A DNA stretch of 41,477 bases. It comes from Conexibacter sp. (lineage in GTDB: Bacteria; Actinomycetota; Thermoleophilia; Solirubrobacterales; Solirubrobacteraceae). A model generated the notes under the pieces. The model was not told the DNA's origin. It saw nothing but the letters and a program-made list of their open reading frames with translations, and ran no database searches. A program made the position numbers and the translations under genes. Below, piece by piece: positions 9,678-17,085 of the stretch. Where the stretch lies: NCBI GenBank assembly GCA_025964325.1, contig JAOPZA010000212.1, forward strand, positions 1-41,477, given 5' to 3'. Positions within the stretch are counted from its first letter, which is position 1. Every line of letters begins with the position of its first letter.

Positions 9678-10374
9678 GTCAGCGCCCGCCGGATCGCCGC
9701 TGCGCTCGCCCGCGGCGCTGCGGGCCCTCGCGCGACTGATCCTGCTGGCGCTGCTGATCGGCGCGCTGTTCGCCGCCGTCGCGCTCAGCGGCGGCCTCTC
9801 GGCCGCCCGCCTGCGCGACTGGGTCAACGGCACGGGCGCGCTCGCGCCGCTGCTGTTCATCACGCTCTCGGCGGTGCTGACGGTCGCCTTCGTGCCGGGG
9901 CCGCTGCTGGCCGGCGCGGCCGGCCTGCTGTTCGGCACCGCCCTCGGCACGCCGTGCGCGATCGCCGCCGCGACGCTCGGCGCCTGCCTCGCCTTCGGCA
10001 TCGCGCGGCGCTTCGGCGCCGGCTCGGTCGACGAGCTGTCCGGTCACCGCGTCGCGCGGCTGCAGGACTGGATCGCCGCGCGCGGCTTCCTCGCCGTCCT
10101 GTACGCACGGATCCTGCCCGTGATGCCGTACAACCTCGTCAACTACGCGGCCGGACTGACGCGCGTGCCGCTGGCGGCCTTCGCGGCCGCGACCGCGATC
10201 GGCTGCGCGCCGCGCGCGTTCGCCTACGTCGCGCTCGGCGGCAGCCTCGACAACCTCGCCTCACCGGCGGCGATCGTCGCCGTCGCCGTGCTGGTGGCGA
10301 TGGCCGTCGTCGGGATCGGCTTCGCGCTGCGGGACTACCGGGCCGGTCGCGGCAGCCCTAGCGGCCCCGCCTGA
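9664..10374 (+). CDS. VTT-domain (TVP38/TMEM64, DedA-like) membrane protein
   Basis: 236 residues, with a Pro/Ser-rich start and then about six hydrophobic segments (LARLILLALLIGALFAAVAL, LLFITLSAVLTVAFVPGPLL and others). The segments FVPGPLLAGAAGLLFGTALG and YARILPVMPYNLVNYAAGLT are typical VTT/SNARE-associated motifs. The family is linked to lipid scrambling or envelope homeostasis; specific activity unknown. GTG start inside the end of the ABC1 kinase gene. Its 3' end overlaps the convergent nrfD-like gene by 17 nt. Confidence 0.85.
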   Translation: MPPPESAPAGSPLRSPAALRALARLILLALLIGALFAAVALSGGLSAARLRDWVNGTGALAPLLFITLSAVLTVAFVPGPLLAGAAGLLFGTALGTPCAIAAATLGACLAFGIARRFGAGSVDELSGHRVARLQDWIAARGFLAVLYARILPVMPYNLVNYAAGLTRVPLAAFAAATAIGCAPRAFAYVALGGSLDNLASPAAIVAVAVLVAMAVVGIGFALRDYRAGRGSPSGPA

Positions 10375-11749
10375 CCGCGCGTTCGACGAGCAGGCTCGTC
10401 CGGCGCATCGCCTCCGCCCACGCGCCGCGCAGCGTCCTCATGCCGGGGGCGAGCGGTCGGCGCGCGCTGGAGGGCGTCCGCCCGCCGCCGATCGGCGCCC
10501 CGAGCTGGTCCTCGACCGTGAGCGTCCCGCGCGCCATCCGCGCGACGTCCATGTCGTCGCGCGCCGAGGCCTTGCCGGCCTCCACCCAGGCGTAGCGGAA
10601 CGCGAGCCCGCCCGCGAGGTAGAGCCCGCTCCCGACGTGGTGGGCGGCGGGGCCGAGAGGCCGGCGCATGAGCCGCAGCGCGAGGCCGGTCGTGACCGCC
10701 GTTCTGCCGATCGTGAAGAGCTGCCCGGGGCGGCCCTCGGTCATCGCGTCTCCGGCGTGGTGCAGCCGTCGCTCGTTGAGCATCGAGAGGCCCAGCTCGA
10801 CCAGCATCGCGCCGGTCTCGAGCTGCCCGAGTGCACGTCGCGTGGGGTGTCTGTGCGGCAAGCCGACCGCGACGAGTGTGAGGCGGGTCGCGGCGGCGCC
10901 GGTCGCGGTCGCGGTGGCGACGAAGATCGGGCCCAGCAGCAGGCGGCTGCGCGCCCACAGCGGCACCGCCGTCGCGGCCAGCAGCACGCCGGTGTAGGAG
11001 CCGAGATAGCCCCCGATCAGCGCCGTCGCGCCGCCCAGGGCCCGCGCGCTGCGGCGCTGGCCGAGCAGGTCGGCGCCGACGGCCCCGGCGTTGGCAGTCG
11101 AGAACGCCACGAGCGCCCAGGCGCCGAGGTTCATCGGCGAGCGCGGCTTGAAGATCCGCAGCATGTTGAGGAAGCGGGCGGGGCGCCCGAGGTCGGCGAT
11201 CAGCAGCAGCGGCGCGGGGGCGACGGTGCCGAGCGCGACGCGGCGGGCGATCCGCGCCGAGCGCTCGTCGCCGGCGACGTCGCAGGCGAGCGCGACGAAC
11301 GACGAGCCGGACGCGATCCCGCCGAGCCAGAAGTAGAGCGGGATCTCCCAGGTCCAGACCGGCGGCTTGATGAACGGACCCTGGACCGTCGGGGGAAGGG
11401 CTGCGGCGCGGCCGCGCCGGTTCGCGGCGGCGACCTCGCCGTCGCGCGGCTCGACGTCGGCGTAGCCGGTGTCGTCGCGCCGGTAGAGGAACGACCAGCG
11501 CGCGTCGCCCCACCCGCGCCGCGCGAGCGCGACGTGCGCACCCTCGACCGCGCGCCGCCACGACGCCGGGGCGCCCGGCGTCCCGACCGCCGGGGTCGTG
11601 TCGCGCGTCGTGGAGTCGTGGTCCGCCACCCAGGCGGTCTCGCGACCCGCACTCGTGCGCGGCGGCTCCTCCTCGGGCGCGACGCCGGCGGGCGGCGGCG
11701 TGCCGCGCTCCAGCGGTCCCTGGGACAGCTCGGCGTCGCGGTCGTCCAT
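10358..11749 (-). CDS. NrfD/PsrC-type membrane subunit of formate dehydrogenase
   Basis: 463 residues. An N-terminal region of about 135 residues is hydrophilic and Pro/Asp/Arg-rich. The membrane part follows: VWTWEIPLYFWLGGIASGSS is the hallmark first helix of NrfD proteins, then LIADLGRPARFLNMLRIFKP, and about eight hydrophobic segments in all. NrfD subunits anchor molybdo/FeS oxidoreductases and exchange electrons with the quinone pool without haem; here it replaces the cytochrome b subunit (FdnI) of the E. coli enzyme. It starts 2 nt after the stop of fdhB, so the operon is tight. The long polar N-terminus is unusual and unexplained. Confidence 0.85.
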   Translation of the reverse strand: MDDRDAELSQGPLERGTPPPAGVAPEEEPPRTSAGRETAWVADHDSTTRDTTPAVGTPGAPASWRRAVEGAHVALARRGWGDARWSFLYRRDDTGYADVEPRDGEVAAANRRGRAAALPPTVQGPFIKPPVWTWEIPLYFWLGGIASGSSFVALACDVAGDERSARIARRVALGTVAPAPLLLIADLGRPARFLNMLRIFKPRSPMNLGAWALVAFSTANAGAVGADLLGQRRSARALGGATALIGGYLGSYTGVLLAATAVPLWARSRLLLGPIFVATATATGAAATRLTLVAVGLPHRHPTRRALGQLETGAMLVELGLSMLNERRLHHAGDAMTEGRPGQLFTIGRTAVTTGLALRLMRRPLGPAAHHVGSGLYLAGGLAFRYAWVEAGKASARDDMDVARMARGTLTVEDQLGAPIGGGRTPSSARRPLAPGMRTLRGAWAEAMRRTSLLVERAVRRGR

Positions 11750-11751
11750 CC

Positions 11752-12870
11752 TCACCACCGGCCCCGTCGCGATGCGCGGCCGAGCCGCGAGGGCGGCTCG
11801 CCCACCGTGCGCGCGGCGCGCACGAACGCGAAGGCGGCGCCCGCGGAGGCAAGCAGGCCCGCGACGACGGCGGCGGCGGTCGCCGGCACCACGTTCTCCT
11901 GGATCGGCGAGTCCGCCTGCGCCGGCAGGCCGTAGCGCTCGGGCGGCTCGGTCAGCAGGAAGAACGCGCCGAGGCCGCCGGCCAGCTGGTCCGCGCCCTC
12001 GTCGCCGGCGCCATAGAGGTAGGCGCCGTCGAGTCCGCGGCGGTGCAGGGTGGCGACCCGGCGCGAGGCGATGTCCACGAGCTCGTCGTAGCGCCCGAAC
12101 TGGATCGAGTCGGTCGGGCACGCCTTCGCGCAGGCCGGCTCGAGTCCGTCCTCGAGCCGGTCGTAGCAGAGCGTGCACTTGCCGGCGCGCCCGTCGTCCG
12201 CGTCGCGGTCGACGACGCCGAAGGGGCAGGCCGGGACGCAGTAGCCGCAGCCATTGCAGACGTCGGCCTGCAGGACCACGGTCTGGAACTCGGTTCGCAC
12301 GAGCGCGCCGGTCGGGCAGGCGTCGAGGCAGCCGGCGTTCGTGCAGTGCTTGCAGACGTCGGACATGAAGACCCAGTCGCCCATTCTCGCGACCGCCTCC
12401 GCGACGTCGACGCCGCCATCGCCGTCCTGCTCCTGCGCCATCGCGACGAGGTCCGGCACCTCCTGCGCCGTCACGCCCGAGCCCGCGCTCGCGAGCTCCT
12501 CGACGGACGGCTCGCCGCTGGGGCCGCTGGGCTCGCCCACCCGCCCGCCTCCCGCGGCGGGGATGTCCGGCACCTGCCCGCCACCTCCCGCGCGCAGCGC
12601 GGCCGCCGCCTCGTCGCGCAGCTGCGGCGTCGGCTCGAGCAGCTCGACGAAGCGGACGTGGCGCCAGGTCGAGGCGGACAGCTCCCCGGTGTGGTCGTAG
12701 GAGCCGCCCTTGACGAAGCGCGAGCCGTCGGCCGGCAGGTCGTTCCACTGCTTGCAGGCAACCTCGCACGCCTTGCAGCCGATGCAGACGGTCGTGTCGG
12801 TGAAGAAGCCCATCCGCTCCGCGCCCTCGCGGTGGACGGCGATCTCGGTCGGCGGGGCGATCGTGCTCAC
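11752..12870 (-). CDS. fdhB: Formate dehydrogenase iron-sulfur subunit
   Basis: 372 residues. Four ferredoxin-type cysteine groups that should hold four [4Fe-4S] clusters: CIGCKACEVACKQW, CKHCTNAGCLDACP, CNGCGYCVPACPFGV and CTLCYDRLEDGLEPACAKAC. It carries electrons from the FdhA active site to the membrane subunit. About 100 residues of low-complexity Gly/Pro/Glu sequence are inserted between the first and second groups. A C-terminal hydrophobic helix (VVPATAAAVVAGLLASAGAA) probably anchors it in the membrane, as in FdnH. GTG start overlapping the fdhA stop (GTGA), so translation is coupled. Confidence 0.9.
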   Translation of the reverse strand: MSTIAPPTEIAVHREGAERMGFFTDTTVCIGCKACEVACKQWNDLPADGSRFVKGGSYDHTGELSASTWRHVRFVELLEPTPQLRDEAAAALRAGGGGQVPDIPAAGGGRVGEPSGPSGEPSVEELASAGSGVTAQEVPDLVAMAQEQDGDGGVDVAEAVARMGDWVFMSDVCKHCTNAGCLDACPTGALVRTEFQTVVLQADVCNGCGYCVPACPFGVVDRDADDGRAGKCTLCYDRLEDGLEPACAKACPTDSIQFGRYDELVDIASRRVATLHRRGLDGAYLYGAGDEGADQLAGGLGAFFLLTEPPERYGLPAQADSPIQENVVPATAAAVVAGLLASAGAAFAFVRAARTVGEPPSRLGRASRRGRW

Positions 12871-15800
12871 CGGGCTGCCTCCTTCGGGTTCTCCGCCGGC
12901 GGGTCGTCCTCGTTCGCTCTGATGCGCGGCCGCGCCGGCGCCGCGCCGGCCAGCCGGATCGTCGTGGGTCGCGTTCGCCGGCCTGCGCGGACGTTGCAGG
13001 AGAACGCCTTCGACTCCTGGATCGAGACGTTCGGATCGCCCGAGATCAGGCCGAGGTCGTTCGCCGAGTCGCCCTTGACCGGGCCGCCGTAGCCCCAGTG
13101 CCACGGCAGCGCGACCTGGTGCAGCGGGCGGCCGTCGATCATCAGCGGTCTCATGCGATCGGTCACGCGCGCCCGCGCCTCGATCTCGGCGCGCTCGGTC
13201 GAGATCACCATCCAGCCGCCGTCCTCGATCCCGCGTCTGGCGGCCAGCAGCGGGTCGATCTCCGCGAACATCTCGGGCTGCAGCTCCGAGAGCCACGGCA
13301 GCCACCGGCTCATGCCCCCGGCGGTGTGGTGCTCGGTCAGGCGGAAGGTCGTCGCGACGAGCGGGAAGCGCGGGTCGTCCGTCGGATTGATCGGGTTCTC
13401 CGGTCGCTCCCACCTGATCCCGGCCGGGTTGGTGCCCTCTCTCAAGCGCGGATAGAGCAGGTTGCGGACGGGCGACTCGATCGGCTCGTAGTGCGTCGGC
13501 ATCGGTCCGTCGTTGAGACCGCCGGGCGCGTAGAGCCAGGCGCGGCCGTCGGACATCATCATGAACGGCTCGTCCCCGGAGATCGCGTCCATCCCGAGCG
13601 ATCTGGGGTCGGCGCGATAGTCGGGGGGCTTGTCGATCGGGAAGTCGGGCACGTCGTATCCCGTCCATCTGCCCTGCTCGGCGTCCCACCAGACGTACTT
13701 CTTGCGCTCCGACCACGGTCTGCCCGCGGGGTCGGCGGAAGCGCGGTTGTAGAGGACGCGGCGGTTCGCGGGCCACGCGAAGGCCCACTCCGGCGAGACC
13801 CAGCCGCCCTGCGGATCGTGGACGTCGCCGGGGTTCCGGCGGCGCGCCTGGTTGACGTCGTCTCTGAAGATCCCGGAGTAGATCCAGCAGCCGCAGGCGG
13901 TCGAGCCGTCGCCTCTGAGGTCGTTGAAGCCGGGAACCGCCTTGCCTGTCGCGACCTCGTAGCCGTTGATCTCCTTGAGCACCGCCTCGACGTCGGGCTC
14001 ACGCGTCTCGCCGTGCTCCGGGTAGTCGCTCGTGACGTTGAGGATCGGCCAGTCCTGCGGGCGCTCGGAGCCGGCGTAGTGGGCCTTCACGCGCTTCATC
14101 AGATGGTGCATGAACCACAGCTCCGAGCGCGCGTCGCCGGGCGGCTCGAGCGCCTTGTCGCGGAACTGGACCAGCCGCTGGGTGTTCGTAAAGCAGCCCT
14201 CCTTCTCGACGTGCGAGGCAGCCGGCATCAGGAAGACCTCGGTCTCGATCTCCTCGGTTCTCAGCTCGCCCGACTGGATCTCGGGCCCGTCGCGCCAGAA
14301 GGTGGCCGTTTCGATCTCCGTCAGGTCGCGCACGACGAGCCATCTGAGCTTCGCCATCGCGCGCCGGTGCAGGCCGGCATGCTGAGAGCCGACGGCCGGG
14401 TTCTGGCCCATCGCGAAGAAGCCCTCGACGCCGCCGTCGAGCATCCGCATCGCTGTCGCGTAGTGGGAATGGTTGCCGCTGATCTTCGGCAGGCGCCCGA
14501 AGCCCCAGTCGTTGCCCTCCGTCGCCGCGTCGCCGAACCACGCCTTCATCAGCGAGACCGCGTACTTGTCGAAGTTCGTCCACCAGCCGCGGTGCGCGCC
14601 GTTGCTCTCGACGTACTGTCTCATCGTCAGCTCGCCCTCGAGGGCGCGCGGCATCGGCAGGTAGCCGGGCAGCAGGTCGTAGAGCGTCGGGATGTCGGTC
14701 GAGCCCTGGATCGAGGCGTGCCCGCGCATCGCCATGATGCCGCCGCCCGGGCGGCCGACGTTGCCGAGCAGCAGTTGCAGCACCGATGCGGCGCGGATCA
14801 TCTGGACGCCGGAGGTGTGCTGCGTCCAGCCGACGGCGTAGACGAAGGCGGTCGTGCGCTCGCGACCCGAGTTCTCGACCAGCGCGTCGGCGACGAGGCG
14901 GAAGTCCTCGGGGGAGATGCCGCAGATCTGCTGCACCATCTCCGGGGTGTAGCGGCTGTAGTGGCGCTTGAGCAGCTGGAAGACGCAGCGCGGATGCTGC
15001 AGCGTGTCGTCGCGCACGTACTCGCCGCTGTGCATGCCGGCGCCGGTCTTGCCCTCGAACGCCTGCGTCGAGTGCTCCCGCACGCCGGCGGCGGCGGCGA
15101 CCTCCCCGCCTTCGTACGTCCAAGAGCTGCGGTCGTAGAGGCCGGTCTCCGGATCGAAGCCGGAGAAGACGCCGTCCAGGTCCTCGGTGTCGCGGAAGCT
15201 CTCGTTGACCAGCGTCGAGGCGTTCGTGTAATGGAGCACGTACTCCTTGAAGTACGACTCCGTCTCGATCACGTGGCGGATCAGTCCGCCGAGGAACGCG
15301 ATGTCGGTGCCGGCGCGAATCGGCACGTGGTGGTCGGCCATCTGGCTCGTCCGGCCGTAGCGGGGGTCGACGTGGAAGACCTTCGCGCCGCGTTCTCTCG
15401 CCTTCATGACCCAGCGGAAGCCGACCGGGTGCGCCTCGGCCATGTTGCCGCCCTCGATCACGATGCAGTCGGCCTTCTGGAGGGCCTGCTGGAAGTCGGT
15501 GGCGCCGCCGCGCCCGAACGAGGTCCCCAGACCGGGGACCGTGGAGCTATGTCATATGCGGGCCTGGTTCTCGATCTGCACCGCGCCCATCGCGGAGAAG
15601 AACTTCTTGATCAGGTAGTTCTCCTCGTTGTCGAGCGTGGCCCCGCCGAGGTGCGCGAAGCCGAGCGTGCGGTCGACGCGGTTGCCGCGCCGGTCGTGGT
15701 CCTGCCAGCCGTTCTCGCGCGCGGCGATCACGCGCTCGGCGACCATGTCCATCGCCTGCTCGAGCTCGATCTCCTCGAACTCGGTCCCGCCGGGACGGCG

Positions 15801-16130
15801 ATATCTGACCTTCGTGAGGCGACCCGGCGACTGCACCAGCTGCCGTGAGGCGGCGCCCTTCGGGCAGAGCGTGCCCTGGTTGATCGGGGAGCGCGGGTTG
15901 CCCTCGATGTCGACGAGCTCGCCGCCGCGCGTGTAGACGAGCTGCCCGCAGCCGACGGCGCAGTAGGGGCAGACCGACTCTGTCACCTTCATGCCCGCGA
16001 TGCGGGCGCCCGCTCTGCGCGTCTCCGGGGAAGCGGCGGCGTCGCCCATGCCCCAGTCGAGCGCCCGGCCGACCAGCGGCAGGCGCCGGACGAACTCGAA
16101 CGACGAGGGGCGGTCGGCGTACTTCGCCAT
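12867..16130 (-). CDS. fdhA: Selenocysteine-containing formate dehydrogenase catalytic subunit
   Basis: 1087 residues, read through an in-frame TGA (15554-15552) as selenocysteine 193 within ENQARI-U-HSSTVPGLG, the same place as the active-site Sec of FdnG/FdhF. An N-terminal [4Fe-4S] motif CPYCAVGC (C54, C57, C61) with LCPKG (C89) and long molybdopterin-binding domains follow the FdnG pattern. Reaction: formate to CO2 with electrons passed to FdhB. No Tat signal peptide is seen: RRLPLVG near residue 15 is not followed by a hydrophobic core, so the enzyme probably faces the cytoplasm. The ATG at 16130 is chosen because a TAGCGT -10 box sits 7 nt upstream; the alternative GTG at 16139 lies within it. 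It is divergent from the formate channel gene. Sec machinery must be encoded elsewhere. Confidence 0.93.
15522..15554 (-). promoter_or_regulatory. Bacterial SECIS element directing UGA to selenocysteine
   Basis: After the TGA and an 11-nt link, the mRNA reads GGTCCCC-GGTCT-GGGGACC: a perfect 7-bp stem with a GGUCU loop. The loop begins 18 nt after the UGA. A GGUCU apical loop at this distance is the feature recognised by SelB in the E. coli fdhF mRNA. Confidence 0.9.
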
Positions 16131-16137
16131 CGGCGCC

Positions 16138-16143
16138 ACGCTA
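16138..16143 (-). promoter_or_regulatory. -10 box of fdhA; shared region with the formate channel gene
   Basis: TAGCGT with a 7-nt spacer to the fdhA ATG. The rest of the 145-nt divergent region contains two CAAGC direct repeats (around 16205 and 16227) that might bind a regulator; no recognised operator was found. Confidence 0.45.
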
Positions 16144-16275: not shown

Positions 16276-17085
16276 ATGGCGTACAGAAGCCCACCAGAGA
16301 TCGCGCGCGCCGGCGTCGCTGCCGGCGCCACCAGAGCCTCGCTGCCGTGGGACAAGGCACTCGTCGCCGGCTTCCTCGCCGGCGCCTACATCGCCTTCGC
16401 CGGCCTCCTCGCGGTCGTCACCTCCGCCGGCCTCGACCCGCGGATCTGGGGCGGCGTCCAGACGCTGATCACGGGCGTCGTCTTCACGCTCGGCCTCGTG
16501 CTCGTCGTCGTCGCCGGCTCGGAGCTGCTGACCGGCAACATGGCGCTCGTTCCGCTCGGCGTGCTCGACCGCCGCGTCAGCGTCGGGCGGCTGGTCTTCA
16601 ACCTCTTCTGGGTGCTGGTCGGCAACGTCGCCGGCTCGATCTTCGTCGCCTACTTCCTGGCGGTCAAGACGGGCGTCGTGACCGCGCCGATCGACCTCGC
16701 CCGGCTCGGGAGAATCTCGACCGGCAAGGCGATCACGGAAACCGACTGGCAGATCTTCCTGCGCGCGGTCGGCTGCAACTGGCTCGTCTGCCTCGCGGTC
16801 TGGATGGCGCTCGCGGCTGAGGACGTCGGCGGCAGAATCCTCGCGATCTTCTTCCCGATCATGGCGTTCGTCGCGCTGGGCTTCGACCACGTCGTCGCGA
16901 ACATGTTCTTCCTGCCGGCGGCGATCTTCGCCAACGTGCCGGGGATCGGCTGGGGCGACGTGTTGAAGAACTGGGCCTTCGCGTTCCTGGGGAACTTCGT
17001 CGGCGCGTTCCTGTTCGTCTCGCTGTCGTACTGGTACCTGTACGTCCGCGGAACGAGGGAGCCGGCGACGCCGACCGGCGCCTAG
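16276..17085 (+). CDS. focA: Formate/nitrite transporter (FNT) family channel
   Basis: 269 residues with six membrane segments. FNT signatures are present: AGSELLTGNM in the second/third helix region, NWLVCLAVWMA, and GFDHVVANMFFLPAA carrying the conserved pore histidine. FNT proteins form pentameric channels for formate, nitrite or related monoacids. Formate is the best guess because the gene is divergent from the formate dehydrogenase operon, sharing a 145-nt control region. It has a strong Shine-Dalgarno site. The 3' end overlaps the convergent pyk gene by 4 nt. Direction of transport is inferred to be import, since the dehydrogenase lacks an export signal. Confidence 0.9.
   Translation: MAYRSPPEIARAGVAAGATRASLPWDKALVAGFLAGAYIAFAGLLAVVTSAGLDPRIWGGVQTLITGVVFTLGLVLVVVAGSELLTGNMALVPLGVLDRRVSVGRLVFNLFWVLVGNVAGSIFVAYFLAVKTGVVTAPIDLARLGRISTGKAITETDWQIFLRAVGCNWLVCLAVWMALAAEDVGGRILAIFFPIMAFVALGFDHVVANMFFLPAAIFANVPGIGWGDVLKNWAFAFLGNFVGAFLFVSLSYWYLYVRGTREPATPTGA

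What the first reader, a model, noticed from the sequence alone, without database searches (positions are those of the whole stretch)
15522..15560. Formate dehydrogenase is a selenoprotein with a near-ideal SECIS hairpin
The apparent frame break in fdhA is a TGA at the exact active-site position (ENQARI-U-HSSTV), followed by a perfect 7-bp stem and GGUCU loop 18 nt after the UGA. The organism should therefore own selA, selB, selC and selD. Gene callers will split this gene into two ORFs.
Basis: partly seen in the sequence, partly recalled or inferred. Interest (0 to 1): 0.7.

Follow-up and report, generated by a model that had tools for sequence, protein, structure and literature searches.

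The report
Selenocysteine formate dehydrogenase with SECIS hairpin
This actinobacterium almost certainly reads a stop codon in its formate dehydrogenase gene as the rare amino acid selenocysteine, guided by a standard RNA hairpin just downstream; its genome carries the full machinery to do so, and the system is of a well-known kind.

Summary
The finding is right. On the minus strand the formate dehydrogenase alpha gene (about 16139..12867) has one in-frame TGA (15554..15552) at the catalytic Sec position. It is followed by an 11-nt spacer and a perfect 7-bp stem with a GGUCU loop (15540..15522). All 30 near relatives from other genomes that cover the site have TGA there. Across 52 distinct Sec sequences the loop U is invariant, although the matching Gly codon GGT is rare (4%) in the window. 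Two stem pairs joining silent codon positions covary. A Cys orthologue has lost the hairpin, and its genome lacks clear selB and selC matches. The window's own genome has tRNA-Sec, selA, selB, selD and fdhD, plus a second Sec formate dehydrogenase. NCBI already holds a family model for this enzyme (NF041513). Selenium-dependent formate oxidation has been shown in another actinobacterium, Actinomycetospora. The gene is therefore an ordinary new member of a known kind. Selenium in this particular protein has not been measured.

The parts
12867..16139 (-). fdhA: formate dehydrogenase alpha subunit, 1090 aa read through TGA as Sec196 (start GTG 16139 or ATG 16130)
   Evidence: NF041513 1697 bits over 29-1059 and TIGR01553 967 bits, both over cut-off; Molybdop_Fe4S4, Molybdopterin and Molydop_binding domains; aligned along its length to solved 1H0H with the modified residue in the same column
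15552..15554 (-). UGA codon read as selenocysteine (residue 196)
   Evidence: TGA in all 30 near homologues that cover the site
15541..15551 (-). 11-nt spacer between UGA and SECIS stem
   Evidence: same length as in E. coli fdhF
15522..15540 (-). SECIS hairpin: 7-bp stem, GGUCU loop
   Evidence: Rfam SECIS_3 E 0.0016, below gathering score
11752..12870 (-). fdhB: 4Fe-4S beta subunit (start not fixed; Fe-S matches about 12091-12378)
   Evidence: Fer4_11 E 3e-23; best NCBIfam match FDH-beta TIGR01582, 167 bits, below its cut-off
10358..11800 (-). fdhC: NrfD-type membrane subunit (start not fixed; NrfD match about 10574-11359)
   Evidence: PF03916 E 3e-20 in ORF 10358..12769
16276..17085 (+). 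formate/nitrite transporter (FocA/NirC family), divergent from fdhA
   Evidence: PF01226 E 3.5e-75; TIGR00790 212 bits, just under its cut-off of 232

Best explanation
The gene encodes the catalytic subunit of a molybdo- or tungsto-enzyme formate dehydrogenase of the FDH-N type, with selenocysteine at residue 196. During translation the SECIS hairpin just downstream of the UGA binds the winged-helix end of SelB. [quoted passage not shown] SelA makes Sec-tRNA from selenophosphate supplied by SelD. FdhA then oxidises formate and passes electrons through FdhB (Fe-S) to the NrfD-type membrane subunit, probably to quinone; the divergent transporter probably carries formate. Shown here by sequence: codon, hairpin, conservation, machinery and gene order. 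Inferred: the actual Sec insertion, metal, direction and electron acceptor.
For: Full-length family match through the TGA and alignment of the residue with the modified (Sec) position of solved 1H0H. TGA in 30 of 30 near homologues from Solirubrobacterales, Acidimicrobiales, Dermabacter-type and Verrucomicrobia records. Loop third base U in 52 of 52 distinct Sec sequences, while Gly GGT is 4% in the window's genes; silent-silent stem pairs 17-29 (C-G 30, G-C 13, U-A 6) and 20-26 (C-G 47, G-C 5) covary. Cys homologues L065, L106 and L109 lack the GGU loop, and L065's genome lacks selC and a selB match over the cut-off. selA, selB, selC, selD and fdhD in the own genome. SelB has the wing domain PF09107. 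E. coli fdhF has the same 11-nt spacing and GGUCU. In Actinomycetospora chiangmaiensis, removal of formic acid depends on selenium and is ascribed to such Sec-FDHs (PMC7176365).
Against: No protein or selenium measurement for this organism. The genome is a fragmented assembly (251 contigs); selA is split across two contig ends. Folding energy is not exceptional. The covariation test does not correct for relatedness. Four relatives with TGA fdhA lack a selB match (G346, G348, G360, G373), three of them also lack tRNA-Sec, and G379 has selB but no tRNA-Sec match, perhaps through incomplete assembly.
Confidence: 0.97

Rival explanations
1. The gene is a pseudogene broken by a nonsense mutation at TGA.
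For: A plain reading gives two ORFs.
Against: The same TGA occurs in all near homologues, including isolates such as Conexibacter arvalis and Solirubrobacter; both halves are otherwise intact and the protein scores far above the family cut-off; the hairpin is conserved.
Confidence: 0.01
2. A sequencing error turned a Cys codon (TGC) into TGA.
For: Cys homologues with TGC or TGT exist.
Against: TGA is found independently in dozens of assemblies, and the genome also has a second TGA copy on contig C120.
Confidence: 0.005
3. The TGA is read as Cys or Trp by suppression or another code, not as Sec.
For: None found.
Against: TGA serves as the stop of this and other genes in the window; the full Sec machinery and SECIS are present; a Cys-encoding orthologue lacks SECIS and its genome lacks clear selB and selC matches.
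Confidence: 0.01

Closest known systems
NCBIfam NF041513 formate dehydrogenase of Actinobacteria (Sec-FDH such as FdhA1 of Actinomycetospora chiangmaiensis, PMC7176365)
   Same: Full-length match 1697 bits against cut-off 1400; TGA and hairpin in nearly all members sampled; in A. chiangmaiensis the beta and gamma subunits are encoded alongside.
   Different: Here selA/selB, selC and selD lie on other contigs, whereas in A. chiangmaiensis selA and selB are listed with the FDH1 cluster. That FdhA1 itself falls in NF041513 was not tested.
E. coli FDH-N (FdnG, 1KQF) and Desulfovibrio W-FDH (1H0H)
   Same: FDH-N alpha family (TIGR01553 967 bits), Sec at the same aligned position (shown for 1H0H).
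   Different: Membrane subunit is NrfD-like instead of the cytochrome b subunit FdnI of E. coli (from memory); no clear twin-arginine signal seen at the N-terminus (by eye).
E. coli fdhF SECIS
   Same: 11-nt spacer and GGUCU in the apical loop.
   Different: Continuous G+C-rich 7-bp stem with no bulged U in the stem; from memory, this resembles the Moorella thermoacetica fdhA SECIS, whose U is extruded from the loop.

Membership tests
Selenocysteine formate dehydrogenase alpha subunit | Full-length FDH alpha protein with Fe4S4 and molybdopterin domains | tested here: met
   NF041513 and TIGR01553 above cut-off; Pfam domains
Selenocysteine formate dehydrogenase alpha subunit | In-frame UGA at the catalytic Sec/Cys position | tested here: met
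   alignment to 1H0H
Selenocysteine formate dehydrogenase alpha subunit | Selenium in the protein and selenium-dependent activity | not testable with these tools
   Selenium dependence shown only in another actinobacterium (PMC7176365)
Bacterial SECIS element | Stem-loop just downstream of UGA in the coding sequence, with unpaired adjacent G and U in the loop | tested here: met
   features as in PMC8704476
[quoted passage not shown]
   No bulge within the stem; the last U of the GGUCU loop could take that role, but 3D structure was not tested
Bacterial SECIS element | Rfam model match over gathering score (a convenience of classification, not a functional feature) | tested here: not met
   SECIS_3 24.4 bits against 63; the model also spans coding sequence outside the hairpin
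Sec-decoding trait | selA, selB, selC and selD in the genome | tested here: met
   selA split over contigs C208 and C178

The most novel reading that the evidence does not exclude
The short SelB of this family of bacteria (510 aa, with only about 150 residues after the core domains) reads SECIS hairpins that have a continuous stem and no stem bulge, a reduced form of the SelB-SECIS contact.
Probability: 0.15. Interest if true: 0.3.

Novelty: new member of a known kind. Interest (0 to 1): 0.12.

Why it matters
It correctly marks a gene that simple ORF callers break in two, and adds a genome to those that use selenocysteine. The set of homologues gives clean textbook evidence for a SECIS: silent-silent covariation, an invariant rare codon, and a Cys orthologue that lost the hairpin. 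It does not change what is known about selenocysteine.

Tried and rejected
Hairpin stability as evidence: not unusual against shuffles, and the Cys orthologue folds more stably into another shape, so it was not used. Rfam at gathering threshold found nothing in the window. Extra in-frame stops reported in some relatives lie, in those read, at the C-terminal end of the gene (L099-L103), with one exception (L093), so they were not taken as further Sec codons. selB/fdhA co-occurrence as a statistic is weak: selB is in 70 of 119 genomes of the class but this fdhA in only 15, 11 of them shared. No paper in the library holds the terms for Sec-FDH together with Solirubrobacter or Conexibacter.

Full report
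Observation. The minus-strand frame 16139..12867 reads as one 1090-aa protein if a single TGA at 15554..15552 is taken as an amino acid. That TGA lies in ENQARI-U-HSSTV. After it come 11 nt (CAUAGCUCCAC), then GGUCCCC, loop GGUCU, GGGGACC, a perfect 7-bp hairpin at 15540..15522. Among 607 TGAs on both strands this is the only one with a perfect 7+5+7 hairpin at 8-15 nt. With a GGUC/GUC loop about 0.02 are expected per simulated window, from only 60 simulations. Folding energy alone is ordinary.

Identity. The read-through protein matches NF041513 (formate dehydrogenase of Actinobacteria, 1697 bits, cut-off 1400) and TIGR01553 (FDH-N alpha, 967 bits, cut-off 814), with Fe4S4, molybdopterin and dinucleotide-binding domains. 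Its best solved relative is 1H0H, where the modified residue (printed X; Sec from established knowledge) falls in the same alignment column. Downstream on the same strand are an Fe-S beta subunit and an NrfD-type membrane subunit. Divergently placed is a formate/nitrite family transporter. This is a formate oxidation locus.

Conservation. A genome scan gave 30 near homologues (L018-L047) that cover the site; all have TGA. They come from Solirubrobacterales, including isolates of Conexibacter and Solirubrobacter, and from Acidimicrobiales, Dermabacter-type bacteria and Verrucomicrobia. In a set of 69 Sec loci (52 distinct sequences, picked by having TGA), the loop is GGUCU in 42, AGUCU in 6 and AGUUU in 4, so the middle U is invariant. 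It is the third base of a Gly or Ser codon; in this window's genes GGT is 4% of Gly codons. Two stem pairs join silent third positions: pair 17-29 is paired in 50 of 52, with C-G 30, G-C 13, U-A 6 (shuffle mean 28.0); pair 20-26 in 52 of 52 (shuffle mean 43.0). Positions count from the U of UGA as 0. The outermost pair is often broken (38 of 52 paired) and shows no covariation. The shuffles do not correct for relatedness, but several pair types occur across phyla.

Natural control. L065, a close orthologue (2001 bits to NF041513) from genome G038, has TGC at the site; its following sequence keeps neither the GGU loop nor the stem. G038 is listed at 100% completeness in 3 contigs. It has no tRNA-Sec match at E 1e-9 and only a sub-cut-off selB match (207 bits against 242). 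Two more distant Cys homologues, L106 (TGT) and L109 (TGC), also lack GGU at the loop.

Machinery. The genome in which the window lies (4.34 Mb, 251 contigs, 96.65% complete) has tRNA-Sec at C94 (69.5 bits; ARAGORN calls anticodon TCA), selB at C178 (over cut-off) preceded by the end of selA, the rest of selA on C208, selD on C117 (385 bits) and fdhD on C234. SelB carries PF09107, the third SelB winged-helix family. A second FDH alpha gene, 59% identical and also with one TGA, a GGUCU loop and a similar stem with one mismatch (GGUUCCC/GGGCACC), lies on C120.

Comparison with known systems. E. coli fdhF has the same 11-nt spacing and GGUCU. Reviewed bacterial SECIS features are an in-frame hairpin just after the UGA, unpaired G and U in the loop, and a bulged U (PMC8704476). 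The first two are met. The third is open, because the stem has no bulge and the extra U sits in the loop; from memory this is the Moorella thermoacetica arrangement, and the paper on it was not held. Sec-FDHs in Actinobacteria are established: in Actinomycetospora chiangmaiensis three such systems were deduced, formic acid removal depended on selenite, and the SECIS elements were identified (PMC7176365). FdhA was the largest selenoprotein family in a 2006 survey, with Sec-to-Cys replacement events noted (PMC1794560).

Limits. Nothing here shows selenium in the protein. Four relatives with a TGA fdhA lack a selB match (G346, G348, G360, G373), and all but G348 also lack tRNA-Sec, while G379 has selB without a tRNA-Sec match. 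All are in more than 100 contigs, so missing sequence is the simplest reason, but decay of the trait was not excluded.

Verdict. Confirmed and ordinary: a new member of a known kind, with one small correction to the spacing.

Noticed in passing
L091 / L096 (G000:C120:4047-7211, -): A second formate dehydrogenase alpha gene in the same genome, 59% identical, also with one TGA and a SECIS-like hairpin (GGTTCCC GGTCT GGGCACC, one mismatch in the stem).
   Followed up: partly
L010:553-2085 (G000:C178, +): SelB is short (510 aa): only about 150 residues follow the core domains, with one winged-helix Pfam match. Relatives L115-L117 align over nearly this whole length, so it may be a family trait.
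   Followed up: partly
L138 (genome G346): TGA fdhA with a SECIS hairpin in a genome listed as 97% complete where neither selB nor tRNA-Sec was found; missing contigs or loss of the trait.
   Followed up: partly
L035, L037-L046: Verrucomicrobia soil MAGs carry a 54-56% identical Sec-FDH with the same GGUCU hairpin, which hints at horizontal transfer between phyla or mis-binned contigs.
   Followed up: no
L093: Relative with an additional in-frame TAG 59 codons after the Sec TGA; probably an assembly error or a broken gene.
   Followed up: no
window 12867-16139 (-), N-terminus: No clear twin-arginine signal on FdhA, unlike E. coli FdnG, so the catalytic subunit may face the cytoplasm; judged by eye only.
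   Followed up: no
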